Source: Salvelinus alpinus
Lineage: Eukaryota; Chordata; Actinopteri; Salmoniformes; Salmonidae
Length of the DNA stretch: 64,000 nt
Assembly (NCBI RefSeq): GCF_045679555.1
Contig: NC_092099.1
Coordinates: 7,808,576-7,872,575, forward strand
Reading direction: 5' to 3'
The translations under genes were made by a program, and so were the position numbers. The notes below the pieces were generated by a model. That model had not been told where the DNA came from and made no database searches. It was given only the letters and a program-made list of their open reading frames with translations. Below, piece by piece: positions 4,561 through 14,180 of the stretch (within the stretch, counting starts at the first letter, position 1; each line of letters starts with the position of its first letter).

Positions 4561-5038
4561 TCAGAAATCCTGGATGATCCGGAAGTGGTTCTCGATGGAT
4601 GCGGGCTCATCCTCAAAGTGCAGCTTCTGGCTGAGTCGGGCCCCTAGATCCTCAAGTTTCTTGACAAAGCGACCATGCTCTCGGCCCACCCAGGCTCGCA
4701 TGGGGTCACGCACCTCGTACGGTGTCACGTGGGCGTGGACCGCAACCCCGCTGGCCGCCAGTTCCCCCAGCGCCCGCTTGTCAGTCACCCAGGTCTCGCT
4801 GCCTCCCGGGTGGCCACCGTCCAGCCAGTACATGTCTGAAAGGCGCTCCACAAATGGCCCCAGCTCCGGGTCAGCCCGCGCCCTCGCCAGCTCGTACACC
4901 ATCTGGTTGAGCACCACGCAGCCTTTGCTGAAGCCAACCACGGCCAAGGAGAAACCCGGGGCGACTGTGTCGCTACCCCTTTGAAGCGGGAGGGGGTTAG
5001 GCAAGCCAGCTCGCTCCATGCCGTTGCTCAGCAGTGCC
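4561..5038 (-). CDS. c2orf69: C2orf69 coding exon 3 (C-terminal half)
   Basis: The acceptor TTTGTAG precedes 5038. The exon restores frame as ALLSNGMERAGLPNPLP and carries the G-x-S-x-G motif, the DGGH block and the conserved ENHFRIIQDF C-terminus, ending in TGA at 4561. Codon use is strongly GC-rich, unlike the AT-rich flanks, as expected for a real exon. Confidence 0.93.
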
Positions 5039-8000
5039 CTACAAATCAGTTATAATTGAGTCATTTGGCAGATTATCTAAAGCAATTTACAGTAAATTGA
5101 GACAACTGCATAAAAAATAAGGGCATTCGGAAAGTATTGAGTCCCCTTGACTTTTTCCCACATTTTGTTAAGTTAGCCTTTTTTAAACAATCCTCAATCT
5201 ACACACAATACCACATAATGACAAAGTAAAAACAGGTTTAGAAATGTTTTGTTAATTTATTTAAAAATATCACATTTACATAAGTATTCAGACTCAGGAC
5301 TTTGTTGAAGCACCTTTGGCAGCAATTACAGCCTCAAGTCTTCTTGGGTATTATACTAGAAGCATGGCACACCTGTATTTGGGGAGTTTCTCCCATTCTT
5401 CTCTGTAGATCCTCAAGCACTGTTAGGTTGGTTGGGGAGCGTCGCTGCACACTTATTTCCAGGTCTCTCCAGAGATGTTCGATCAGGTTCTAGCTGGGCC
5501 ACTCAAGGACATTCATCGACTTGTGCCGAAGCCACTCCTGCGTTGTCTTGGCTGTGTGCTTAGGGTCGTTGTCCTGTTAGAAGGTGAACCTTCGCTCCAG
5601 TCTGAGATCCTGAGTGCTCTGGAGCAGGTTTTCATCAAGAATCTCTGTACTTTATTCCGTTCTTCTTTCCCTCGATCCTGACTAGTCTCCCAGTCCCTGC
5701 TGCTGAAAAACATCCCCACAGTATGCTGCTGCCACCATGCTTCACTGTAGGGATGGTGCCAGGTTTCTTCCAGATGTGACGCTTGGCATTCAGGCCAAAG
5801 AGTTGAATCTAGGTTTCATCAGACCAGAGAATCTTGTTTCTCATGGTCTGAGAATCTTTATGTGCCTTTTGGCAAACTCCAAGCGGGCTGTCATGTGCGT
5901 TTTTACTGAGGAGTGGCTTCAGTCTGGCCACTCTACCATAAAGGCCTGATTGGTGGAGTGCTGCAGAGATGGTTGTCCTTCTGGAAGGTTCTCCCATCTC
6001 CACAGTGGAACTCTGTCAGAGTGACCATCGGGTTCTTGGTCACCTTCCTGACCAAGGCCCTTTTCCCCAGATTGCTCAGTTTGGCAGGGTGTCCAGCTCT
6101 AGGAAGAGTCTTGGTGATTCAACATTTCTTCCATTTAAGAATGGAAGCCACTGTGTTCTTGGGAACCTTCAATGCTGCAGCAATTTTTTGCTATCTTTCC
6201 CCAGACCTGTGCCTCAACACAATCCAGTCTCGGAGCTCTACGGACAATTCCTTTTGACCTCATGGCTTGGTTTTTGCTTTGATGTCAACTTAGGCACACA
6301 CCTGTCTATAAGGTCCCCATCTAAATCATGTCCAATCAATTGAATTTACCACAGGTGGACTCCAATCAAGTTGAAGAAACATCTCAAGGATGATCAATAG
6401 AAACAGGATGCACCTGAGGCCAATTTTGAGTCTCATAGTAAAGGGTCTGAATACTTAGGTAAATAAGGTATTTAAAAAATCATATAAGTTCGCAAAAATG
6501 TCTAAACCTGTTTCCGCTTTGTCATTATGGGGTAGTGTGTAGATTGAGGAAAAAGAAATCAAATCAATTTTAGAATAAGGCTGTAATGTAACAAAATGTG
6601 GAAAAAGTCAAGGGGTCTGAGGTAGTGAGTGTTAGTGACAATCACAGTGCTAGAATAAAACATTACGAGATGGGATACATCAGGTGGCGAAATGCTCCGT
6701 AGTCAGGTGAGTGCTCGGGCGCTCCAAACAGGTTGCTCTCCACAAAGTTGTGATAGCAGCTGAACTTGTGCAGGTACATGCGGGAGGCTCGGATCACCCA
6801 CACGTGGCGGTCAGGGAAGCGGCGACCCAGGGTGAGGGCGACGTTCTCCAGGCTCCAGGACAGCCACTGCGCCCCCTCTGGCTGGAGCGACATCTCCTGC
6901 TGGAAGTTCTAGGGATGAGAGATGGACAGAGGAACAGTGGTGTACGAGATAGACGGGGAGGAGTGGGTTGGGTGGAGGCGGAGGGAAGTGGGGAAAAGGA
7001 GAGGGGGTCAGTGAAAAGGGAAATAGACAGATGGGGGTGCGAGTGGGGGAGATGGACAGAAGGGAAAGGGCCGAGGATGGAGAGAGAGAAAGATGGGGTG
7101 AGTCACCTGGCTTAAAGCAGCTTAAGAAGGGTTCATGTTTTTGTGCATCATGGCAACTAAATAACAACCGCATCAATTGGGAGACAAGACCTGTTCTGCA
7201 GTGTCATGCAGTTCGCCTAACAATGACCATGAACTAATTCTGAGGGGGAAAAAAGGCTACCCTCATGTATTTGGTCCTTGGGTGGAAGACCAAACTTACT
7301 AAACTAGTTTTTAAACTATCCTCCTCCCAATGGAGTTTAACACATCAGGTGAAAGAGTGGTCCCTATGTGATCATGGTCTGGGGTTGCATACATAGACAT
7401 TAAAGGGGTCGCATACAATGAACACATTCATTAACAATTGCTGAGCATCACACTCGCAACATCTTCAGAATACTAACATTCCCTCGGAAATACTAAGACA
7501 CCCTTGGAATCATAACATTTTAGTAGGCTAGTCTGTTGGAACTCTTGGAATGGATGTTATTATTTGTGGGCAGGAGTATGTGAATTCGACAATCCACTTG
7601 AAATGTAAACAACCATAGCTGTAACCAATTTAGCTAACAGGATTATAGGCTGGCTACGCAACGGCCTTTCACCCTTATGCTTGGCATCAATTGGCATACG
7701 TGTATAATGTTACCAACCTGCATAATGCCATGACAAATAGCTGAAATGTTCATTTGATGGCGAAATAAGTGATATTCATATGTACCTGCCTGACAAAACC
7801 CACACCTCTCACCTGTATGTCTCCAGGGAAAAACACAACATGTGCACTGCGATATTCGGCGTCTGAACCGCACCGTCCCTGTGAATCCAAAGTACTGAGT
7901 AGAAGCAAGTCGTTGACTCGGTCCGGTTGGCATCCCGGAATGTCGACCAGTCTCCGCAGTCGCGGCGGGCTCCCAGGGCGTGTTTCCTGGACTCCAGGCA

Positions 8001-8142
8001 GAGAATGCTCTGGAGGCTCGAATGACGATGAACCTGCTGCAGCGCTCATTGCTTTTGCTGCACAATGAAAGCCCGTTGCAACTCCACGAGTGGTTATCAT
8101 GGGGGCTAAAACCGGATTAGTGTAGTTTAGACGCAAATGCAT
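4561..8142 (-). CDS. c2orf69: C2orf69 homologue (mitochondrial, alpha/beta-hydrolase-like), whole gene
   Basis: Three coding exons on the minus strand (8142-7813, 6908-6679, 5038-4561) total 1038 bases: 345 codons plus TGA, close to the 385 residues of the human protein. Junctions are GT/AG with phases 0 and 2 that keep the frame. Conserved blocks are VVFFPGDIQN (exon 1/2 join), WSLENVALTLGRRFP, HKFSCYHNFVESNLFGAPEH, GFSKGCVVLNQ (Ser224 in a G-x-S-x-G nucleophile-elbow-like motif), YWLDGGHPGGSETWVT, HVTPYEVRDPMRAWVG and the terminal ENHFR. The human protein is mitochondrial, and its loss causes a combined oxidative phosphorylation deficiency; its enzymatic activity is not settled. The start at 8142 follows an in-frame TAA 9 bases upstream. 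A second Met at codon 15 (8100) is possible. The N-terminus is basic, as expected for a mitochondrial presequence. The gene is divergent from FTCDNL1, and a Tc1 copy sits in intron 2. Confidence 0.93.
5119..6625 (-). mobile_element. Tc1-like transposon in C2orf69 intron 2
   Basis: The left end GCATTCGGAAAGTATT with AGTCCCCTTGAC is mirrored at the right by GTCAAGGGGTCTGA. The element fills nearly the whole intron between exons 2 and 3. It reads antisense to + and so has the same transcriptional direction as the host gene. Same family as the truncated copy at 31565-32832. Both ends are diverged, so it is an old insertion. Confidence 0.85.
5290..6262 (-). pseudogene. Tc1-like transposase remnant
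   Basis: Minus-strand fragments in shifting frames. 6003-5809 carries PSRRTTISAALHQSGLYGR (DNA-binding region) and MRNKILWSDET, the first catalytic Asp. Upstream and downstream parts are only recoverable by changing frame several times. Non-functional. Confidence 0.8.
6679..6908 (-). CDS. c2orf69: C2orf69 coding exon 2
   Basis: 230 bases after the acceptor CCCTAG at 6914-6909. Begins NFQQEMSLQPEG, runs through WSLENVALTLGRRFPDRHVW and HKFSCYHNFVESNLFGAPEH, and ends inside the Met codon of GAFRHLM with donor AT|GTATCC (phase 2). Read-through of the donor gives a stop four codons later, which supports splicing there. Confidence 0.9.
6909..7812 (-). other. C2orf69 intron 1
   Basis: About 900 bases with consensus GT/AG ends. 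6950-7100 is strongly purine-rich on the plus strand (GGGGGAGATGG-type), which gives meaningless open frames. No repeat element recognised. Confidence 0.6.
7813..8142 (-). CDS. c2orf69: C2orf69 coding exon 1
   Basis: Codes for residues 1-110, from MHLRLNYTNPV to HVVFFPGDIQ. The donor is ACAG|GTGAGAG, with the intron starting at 7812, phase 0. The first half is poorly conserved, low in acidic residues, and probably holds the mitochondrial targeting sequence. VVFFPGDIQ is the first block shared with the human protein. Confidence 0.9.
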
Positions 8143-8620
8143 AGCCAGTTAATGTACAGCATCCGAGACAGACACACGACAATGAACGTGCAAAACGATG
8201 GAATATCGACAAAATAGTCATAAACAACTTTCTACCTTATGTCGTTGTAGTTCCTCCTCAACATCGTTGTTTTTCCTGGACGTTGATAATCTTGTCAACC
8301 TGGGTGACGCTAAAGCGAGTACTGTTGTTGTCTTTGCATTTTGGTCCTCCACGTGTCGCTGTTTGCCAAGGACGTCAGCACGGGAACCAGCCCTCATCCG
8401 GTTTCTGAAAGCAAAATACGAATTGCGCATGATCACAGCAAAGACCGTACAATATAAAGATGGGCAGAAACTGCTTCTCCAATAGAAAACCCCGATCACG
8501 CTTGTAGTAGGCGAAGTCATGGTGTCTTTTGCTTTCTAAACGCATGCGCTGAAACACGTCATCGGTTCAAACGGTCGTCTCGCGCCAAACTGCGCATGTG
8601 CAGACCGTGAAATCAAAGGC
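8143..8620 (-). promoter_or_regulatory. Putative C2orf69 promoter with NRF-1-like and E2F-like motifs
   Basis: No TATA box in a convincing position. Motifs of the kind found at TATA-less promoters cluster here: GCATGCGC at 8542-8549 and TGCGCATGTGCA at 8591-8602 (NRF-1-like), and GTTTGGCGCG on the minus strand at 8590-8581 (E2F-like). NRF-1 commonly drives nuclear genes for mitochondrial proteins, which fits C2orf69. Assignment is by motif only. Confidence 0.45.
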
Positions 8621-9489
8621 AGACCTTCAATAAATTGTTTTGGATGAAAACGTGTCAGTTTGTCACTTTCATGAGGTTGGCGGCCCGGCTCTAGGTTGTG
8701 CTTTTAGATTTGAGAAAATTGACAACTAAGGAAGAATTTGTCACCTCTCTAAATGACTTCTGAAACCCCAATCCCTGGTCTGCTTTGCATGCCTTCCCGG
8801 AAGTCTCGCGATGTTGCCTCTCGGTTTATAAACTCAATGGTTGAAGTTTGAATTTACCACTGAGTTACTAAACCCAGAGGTGCAACATCGTGAGAGACTT
8901 CCGGGAACGCTTACGAAGCAGACCAGGCCGGGGTTTGAGAAGTCAATTAGAGAAGTGACTAATTATTCCTTAGTTGTTAATTTTCACAAAATCTAAAGGC
9001 ACAACCTAGATTCGAGCCAATGTTTTAAGAACTTGAACATCTTATTACGCTAACCTCGTGAAAGTGACAAACTGCCACGTTTTCATTTACATAAAAAAAT
9101 AAATTTTGTATCGAAGTTGTGCCTTTGATTTGACAGCCTGCACCAACGCAATTTGGCGCGAAACGACAGTTAGCCCAGATGATGTGCTTCTGCGCATGAG
9201 TTTAGTTTAGCCGACGTCGCCATTACATCGTTTACAAGTGTGATCGGGGATTTCTCTGGTTTCCACTAGTTACCACAGTCACCATGTCAAATTTGGCTAT
9301 CGTAAAAAGTAATGTAAACAAAAAAATTGCTTTTGGTATTAATTGAAGGTTAGTCATAAGGTTAGCAGTGTGGTTAGGATTAGGTTTAAAATCAGATTTT
9401 AGCCAGAAAATTGTAGGAAAGGGCGGGGTTTATCGCTTTGTGGCTGTGGTAACTAGTGACGACCGATTTCTATTGGAGAGGCAGCTTCT

Positions 9490-9490
<1 letters not shown>
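8478..9490. repeat. Large imperfect palindrome between two divergent genes
   Basis: The left arm from about 8478 to about 8850 is repeated in inverse from about 9490 back to about 8865. Matching landmarks include CCCGATCAC (8491) with GTGATCGGG (9240-9248), CGCGCCAAA (8581) with TTTGGCGCG (9152), AAATCAAAGGC with GCCTTTGATTT (9121), GTTTGTCACTTTCATGAGG with CCTCGTGAAAGTGACAAAC, and GGAAGTCTCGCGATGTTGC with GCAACATCGTGAGAGACTTCC. The centre is near 8850-8870 with only a short spacer. By eye the arms are roughly 75-85% alike, so the structure is old. The right arm contains a later insertion at 9256-9465. Confidence 0.85.
9256..9465. mobile_element. 210-bp MITE with terminal inverted repeats inside a palindrome arm
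   Basis: Ends are CACTAGTTACCACAG and its complement CTGTGGTAACTAGTG. It is flanked by ATTTCT at 9250-9255 and 9466-9471 (with the preceding G, up to 7 of 8 bases match, so a hAT-type 8-bp duplication is possible). The opposite palindrome arm reads straight through, which confirms the boundaries. The interior contains a GGTTAGGATTAGG-like stretch and no coding sequence. Confidence 0.8.

Positions 9491-14180
<4,690 letters not shown>

What the first reader, a model, noticed from the sequence alone, without database searches (positions are those of the whole stretch)
8478..9490. Palindromic divergent promoter between C2orf69 and FTCDNL1
The space between two divergent genes is an imperfect palindrome with arms of about 380 bases and almost no spacer. 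E2F-like motifs appear in both arms, and an NRF-1-like motif appears in the left arm with a degenerate counterpart in the right, so each gene may look out on a mirror-image promoter copy. Either the promoter was duplicated in inverse, or a fold-back element inserted between the genes and supplied promoter sequence to both. Hairpins this long are usually unstable, so its survival is notable.
Basis: partly seen in the sequence, partly recalled or inferred. Interest (0 to 1): 0.75.

Follow-up and report, generated by a model that had tools for sequence, protein, structure and literature searches.

The report
Two back-to-back transposon copies in promoter
The mirror-image stretch between two fish genes is real, but its two halves are old copies of one common mobile DNA element lying tail to tail, not a copied promoter, and whether they now help switch the genes on is untested.

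Summary
The palindrome is real (304 of 366 aligned columns identical) and lies between C2orf69 and FTCDNL1. It is not an inverted promoter duplication. Each arm is a copy of a dispersed repeat of about 400 bp in the window's own 2.37-Gb genome: three capped searches gave 103 distinct other places on 34 contigs, from 1159 and 1279 first-look candidates for the two arms. Other copies mostly share both ends. Flanking 8-bp duplications (6 or more of 8 matching) occur in 8 of 24 copies, against 4 of 552 mispaired controls. The copies are single units: 0 of 39 fetched copies is palindromic, and among 40 scored places only the window spans the centre. The CCAAT-, NRF1-, E2F- and ETS-like motifs are family traits. 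So two units lie tail to tail, 8440-8839 and 8858-9491. The right one lacks about 25 terminal bases and holds a second repeat (9257-9464). An 8-bp repeat (7 of 8; chance 0.004) bounds the pair. Flanks are CpG-rich on the left and moderately so on the right, so the pair probably entered an existing promoter. One fold-back event or two insertions remains open; promoter function is untested.

The parts
7750..8148 (-). open frame that holds C2orf69 coding exon 1 (candidate ATGs between about 8049 and 8142); further exons in 6663-6908 and 4561-5049
   Evidence: Pfam PF10561 on 6663-6908 and 4561-5049; exon 1 read by eye from the translation, not tested against Pfam
8139..8438 (.). CpG-rich flank outside the palindrome on the C2orf69 side, probable native promoter
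   Evidence: CpG o/e 1.11; 1 of 48 flanks of 24 other copies reaches this, their mean 0.52
8432..8439 (+). left copy of the putative target-site duplication, ATCACAGC
   Evidence: 7 of 8 matches with 9492-9499; chance 0.004 over 7 offsets
8440..8839 (+). left unit of the dispersed repeat, 5' end outermost, 3' end at the centre
   Evidence: 39 other scored places at 70-82% identity, 37 of them starting at query position 1-7; ends
8840..8857 (.). spacer at the palindrome centre, 18 nt
   Evidence: unit 3' ends set by genomic copies; letters read
8858..9491 (-). right unit of the same repeat, inverted; lacks about 25 bases of the 5' terminus; interrupted by 9257-9464
   Evidence: 39 other scored places at 77-81% identity; the DNA beyond 9491 is no match to the missing terminus, P 0.45
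9257..9464 (+). second repeat (208 bp) nested in the right unit, with inner inverted repeats CACTAGTTACCACAG..., flanked by GATTTCTC / GATTTCTA
   Evidence: 2036 first-look candidates, 39 other scored places, most matching about query 3-209; inverted repeat I8; flanks
9492..9499 (+). right copy of the putative target-site duplication, ATCACAGA
9492..9791 (.). flank on the FTCDNL1 side, moderately CpG-rich (o/e 0.81), probable native 5' region
   Evidence: 9 of 48 flanks of other copies reach this value
10149..10264 (+). first FTCDNL1 coding exon (ATG at about 10149), preceded by a splice-acceptor-like stretch, so a non-coding first exon is expected upstream
   Evidence: read by eye; colinear DNA match at the FTCDNL1 relative on C20

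Best explanation
The palindrome is two units of one old, abundant, non-coding DNA element (about 400 bp, 8-bp target-site duplications, MITE-like) lying tail to tail in the CpG-rich stretch between C2orf69 and FTCDNL1. SHOWN: both arms are dispersed-repeat copies; the other copies examined are single; the promoter-like motifs are family traits; a 7-of-8 direct repeat bounds the pair; a second repeat splits the right unit. INFERRED: a unit jumped into an existing divergent promoter, duplicating ATCACAG(C/A). At about that time a second, inverted, end-truncated unit was added between the first unit's 3' end and the right-hand duplication, somewhat more likely by fold-back copying during insertion or excision repair (about 0.5) than by a second independent jump (about 0.4). 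The arms then diverged like unlinked copies. The insertion moved the two halves of the native promoter about 1 kb apart. Any use of its motifs in transcription is possible but unproven. The confidence given is for the core (two dispersed-element units, tail to tail), not for the fold-back step.
For: Left arm: 39 other scored places (1159 candidates, 40 scored) at 70-82%, 37 of 39 starting at query 1-7. Right arm: 39 other scored places (1279 candidates, 40 scored) at 77-81%, most covering nearly the whole query. Union 103 distinct places on 34 contigs. Common ends in alignments of 26 and 20 copies. 8-bp flank match at 6 or more of 8 in 8 of 24 copies against 4 of 552 mispaired flanks (offset chosen on a grid). 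0 of 39 loci with over 1 kb of flank on each side is palindromic. The centre query matches 39 other places, each by one arm only. CpG o/e of the flanks is 1.11 and 0.81 here against a mean of 0.52.
Against: Only 40 candidates per search were scored, so copy number is not measured, and the pattern count I asked for did not complete. The centre-search places match over only about 45-60 bases; of the 18 loci fetched from them one (L056) matched the arm over no more than 62 bases. Terminal inverted repeats are very weak (CAAAGA/CACAGA), so the class rests on duplication length and size, and 16 of 24 copies show no clear duplication. The bounding repeat was noticed in a search for shared words before its chance was estimated. 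CpG content dips to o/e 0.52-0.57 at 8601-8900, so the CpG-rich zone is not even. The arms share more changes than expected (8 of 358 sites, excess third among 631 pairs; 11 of 389), yet are not resolved as sisters: 94/32 in one tree, apart in a larger one, AU p 0.51.
Confidence: 0.85

Rival explanations
1. On how the pair arose (compatible with the core of the best explanation): two independent insertions of the same family. The second unit jumped into the end of the first, in opposite orientation, and later lost about 25 bp at its outer end.
For: The trees are star-like (3 of 24 and 4 of 35 inner branches well supported). With the left arm as query, 11 other places score higher than the right arm; with the right arm as query, all 39 other scored places score higher than the left arm (a list of the best 40 only). 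In the larger tree the right arm groups with another locus at 86/87. Fish hAT-type MITEs are reported in tandem clusters in cod (PMC12368964; outline with abstract and section 8 read).
Against: No second target-site duplication was seen round the right unit (read by eye). Its truncation ends exactly at the first unit's right-hand duplication. With about 1200 copies in 2.4 Gb, two units within about 20 bp are expected about 0.01 times (my arithmetic; the candidate count stands in for the copy number).
Confidence: 0.4
2. Inverted duplication of a single-copy native promoter, giving each gene its own mirror copy.
For: CCAAT, E2F- and ETS-like motifs in both arms; CpG o/e 0.99 and 1.08 in the arms.
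Against: 103 other genomic places match the arms, with shared ends. Their 300-bp flanks are not promoter-like on average (48 flanks of 24 copies, mean CpG o/e 0.52; longer flanks of 38 loci 0.42).
Confidence: 0.02
3. A fold-back transposon family whose normal form is the palindrome.
For: Nearly spacerless arms; direct repeat bounding the whole.
Against: 0 of 39 fetched copies palindromic; no other place spans the centre among the 40 scored of 236 candidates.
Confidence: 0.04
4. On function (compatible with the core): the pair has been taken over as a working bidirectional promoter, and C2orf69 and FTCDNL1 are driven by mirrored element motifs.
For: Motif set like that of CpG-island promoters (recalled). 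The left arm keeps CCAAT, E2F-, NRF1-, ETS- and BANP-like stretches; its motif columns change at half the rate of its other columns (5/61 against 57/355, p 0.075).
Against: Not significant; 1 of 20 other copies (L082) has a lower ratio, and the right arm shows no such trend (p 0.24). CpG-rich flanks remain outside the palindrome. The arms' end branches (0.10-0.13) are above the median of about 0.09. One search's stronger result (0 of 60 in the left arm) used motif strings that I chose with the left arm in view, so it is circular.
Confidence: 0.2

Closest known systems
[quoted passage not shown]
   Same: Short, non-coding, multi-copy; 8-bp target-site duplications (hAT hallmark recalled). Tandem clusters of hAT MITEs are described in Atlantic cod (PMC12368964; outline with abstract and section 8 read)
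   Different: Here the terminal inverted repeats are barely visible (about 600 bp in the cod element), no autonomous partner was sought, and the pair is tail to tail
Fold-back elements (recalled)
   Same: Two long inverted arms with almost no spacer
   Different: The palindrome was found at this locus only; the family's normal form is one arm
Transposons that spread E2F sites (Brassica MITEs, cited in PMC12595863; passages read)
   Same: A MITE-like family whose copies carry E2F-like motifs
   Different: No binding shown here; the motif set also includes CCAAT-, NRF1- and ETS-like stretches; many copies have lost them (whole motif kept: CCAAT 22 of 30, E2F-like 8 of 33, ETS-BANP 6 of 31)

Membership tests
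hAT-type MITE | 8-bp target-site duplication | tested here: met
   6 or more of 8 matching in 8 of 24 copies against 4 of 552 mispaired flanks; L033 8 of 8; offset chosen as best on a grid
hAT-type MITE | terminal inverted repeats | tested here: inconclusive
   ends (C)AAAGACAG... and ...CTCTGTG give only a weak CA(A/C)AGA match (read by eye)
hAT-type MITE | short and without coding capacity | tested here: met
   unit about 400 bp; no stop-to-stop frame of 80 aa or more overlaps 8536-10266 (the window's copies only, other copies not tested)
hAT-type MITE | relation to a hAT transposase element | not tested
   no autonomous relative was searched for
Fold-back element | copies are themselves long inverted repeats | tested here: not met
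   0 of 39 fetched copies; 0 of 39 other scored places span the centre
Inverted promoter duplication | arms confined to this locus | tested here: not met
   103 other places
Bidirectional CpG-island promoter | CpG-rich DNA between divergent genes | tested here: met
   CpG o/e: left flank 1.11, left arm 0.99, right arm 1.08, right flank 0.81, window 0.42; but 0.52-0.57 in the tiles at 8601-8900
Bidirectional CpG-island promoter | transcription starts in both directions | not testable with these tools
   needs CAGE, 5' RACE or GRO-cap

The most novel reading that the evidence does not exclude
A fish MITE-like family spread a ready-made housekeeping-type promoter module (CCAAT, NRF1-, E2F-, ETS- and BANP-like motifs, CpG-rich even in ordinary DNA). 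Its tail-to-tail doubling between C2orf69 and FTCDNL1 turned one shared promoter into two mirror-image ones that now drive the two genes separately.
Probability: 0.12. Interest if true: 0.6.

Novelty: new member of a known kind. Interest (0 to 1): 0.3.

Why it matters
It removes a tempting but wrong reading (mirror-duplicated promoter) and shows how a pair of ordinary transposon copies can imitate one. If the family's motif array proves active, the locus would be a natural test of whether a mobile element can split a shared promoter into two; one C2orf69 exon matched only once in the genome, which would make the locus easy to assay.

Tried and rejected
Rejected: single-copy inverted promoter duplication; fold-back family; known structured RNA (Rfam, 0 matches in 7600-10400). 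Led nowhere: viral contigs as a source of relatives (0 matches for two patterns). A motif-retention test gave 0 of 60 changed in the left arm but used motif strings picked with the left arm in view; repeated with copies found by the right arm and generic motif patterns recalled from memory, the effect was not significant (SP1, YY1 and CRE patterns gave no match in the family's majority sequence). CpG decay as a test of methylation suggests slow decay, but the copies were chosen by likeness to the left arm, so it is only a hint. A related FTCDNL1 locus on C20 was examined to date the insertion: no arm within about 13 kb upstream of its first coding exon, but the flanks there no longer align, so this does not prove a later origin. 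A pattern count of all copies was asked for several times and never answered.

Full report
Between C2orf69 (minus strand) and FTCDNL1 (plus strand; Pfam PF10561 and PF07837) lies an imperfect palindrome. A self-comparison gives one inverted match over 8484-9255 (E 1e-124) and an outer 24-nt pair. With the interrupting insert left out, 304 of 366 paired columns agree and K80 is 0.19.

The decisive test was copy number in the window's own genome (2.37 Gb, 928 contigs, unnamed; a salmonid by my inference). The left arm gave 1159 first-look candidates, of which 40 were scored; besides the window's own arms, 39 places match at 70-82%, and 37 of these start at query position 1-7. The right arm gave 1279 candidates, 40 scored; 39 other places match at 77-81%, most over nearly the full arm. 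With the centre query these make 103 distinct other places on 34 contigs. The centre-query places rest on about 45-60 bases each; of 18 loci fetched from them, which hold two places already known and one place twice, one (L056) matched the arm over no more than 62 bases. Alignments of 26 copies and of 20 further copies found with the right arm show a unit of about 400 bp with common ends. An 8-bp flanking duplication at 6 or more of 8 matches is seen in 8 of 24 copies and in 4 of 552 mispaired controls (two near-duplicate copies dropped beforehand, offset chosen on a grid). This is a dispersed mobile element, MITE-like by size and duplication length. Its terminal inverted repeats are too weak to classify it firmly.

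The family is not made of palindromes. None of 39 fetched loci with more than 1 kb on each side carries an abutting inverted partner; one, L041, has a fragment in opposite orientation about 1 kb away, and one, L024, a short internal inversion. A query across the palindrome centre found 39 other places, each matching one arm only (40 scored of 236 candidates). So the locus holds two units tail to tail, 8440-8839 and 8858-9491, with an 18-nt spacer. The right unit lacks about 25 terminal bases: the DNA beyond 9491 resembles the missing end no better than random window stretches (P 0.45). The right unit is also split by a second repeat, 9257-9464, with 2036 first-look candidates in the genome.

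How the pair arose is less certain. The 8 bases before the left unit (ATCACAGC) recur as ATCACAGA directly after the right unit (7 of 8; 0.004 by chance over 7 offsets), as if the pair were one insertion. The repeat was first noticed in a search for shared words, so that figure is somewhat after the fact. Chance adjacency of two units is unlikely on copy number alone. Yet the arms are no more alike than unlinked copies: with the right arm as query the 39 other scored places reach 307-358 bits and the left arm 214 (best 40 only); with the left arm as query 11 other places outscore the right arm. Trees are star-like. In one the arms are sisters with support 94/32; in a larger one they are apart; the AU test does not decide (p 0.51, the tree with them together 0.64 log units better). 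They share more changes than expected (11 of 389 sites; 8 of 358, excess third among 631 pairs). Fold-back copying at about the time of insertion explains the bounding duplication, the truncation and the divergence, and I prefer it narrowly over two insertions.

What it does is unproven. Many copies have lost them: whole motif kept in 22 of 30 for CCAAT, 8 of 33 for E2F-like, 10 of 35 for NRF1-like, 6 of 31 for ETS-BANP. Copies elsewhere are CpG-rich (24 copies, mean o/e 0.88) in ordinary flanks (48 flanks, mean 0.52; longer flanks of 38 loci, mean 0.42). Here the flanks are 1.11 on the left (reached by 1 of 48) and 0.81 on the right (reached by 9 of 48), so the pair probably entered an existing promoter, though the right side alone would not show it. 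Motif columns in the window's arms are not significantly better kept than the rest (left p 0.075, right p 0.24). Both arms have end branches above the family median. Hence no sign of strong constraint, but not a refutation of promoter use.

Dating was tried. One C2orf69 exon used as query matched one place in the genome. A decayed relative of FTCDNL1 with stops lies on C20 and several exons align in order at about 78-80% DNA identity. No arm occurs within about 13 kb upstream of its first coding exon, but the flanks there are eroded. Tens of millions of years is my guess from K80 0.19 and recalled fish rates.

Literature: eight searches. I read the outline with abstract and section 8 of PMC12368964 and passages of PMC12595863; all other papers were seen only in listings. 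The listings showed no title or abstract start describing this palindrome.

Noticed in passing
window 9257-9464: A second dispersed repeat (208 bp, 2036 first-look candidates) nested in the right arm, with flanks GATTTCTC/GATTTCTA (7 of 8).
   Followed up: partly
G000:C20:46983055-46983451 (L093): A relative of FTCDNL1 with stop codons, several exons colinear with the window's at about 78-80% DNA identity; probably a decayed duplicate from genome doubling, while one C2orf69 exon matched only once.
   Followed up: partly
L009-L045: Copies of the arm family stay CpG-rich (mean o/e 0.88 in 24 copies) in CpG-poorer surroundings although they are about 16% diverged, a hint of low germline methylation; copies were chosen by likeness to the left arm.
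   Followed up: partly
L012/L047 and L034/L038 (contig C36): Two pairs of nearly identical copies with the same near flanks, about 3 and 10 kb apart: probably local segmental duplications; one of each pair was left out.
   Followed up: no
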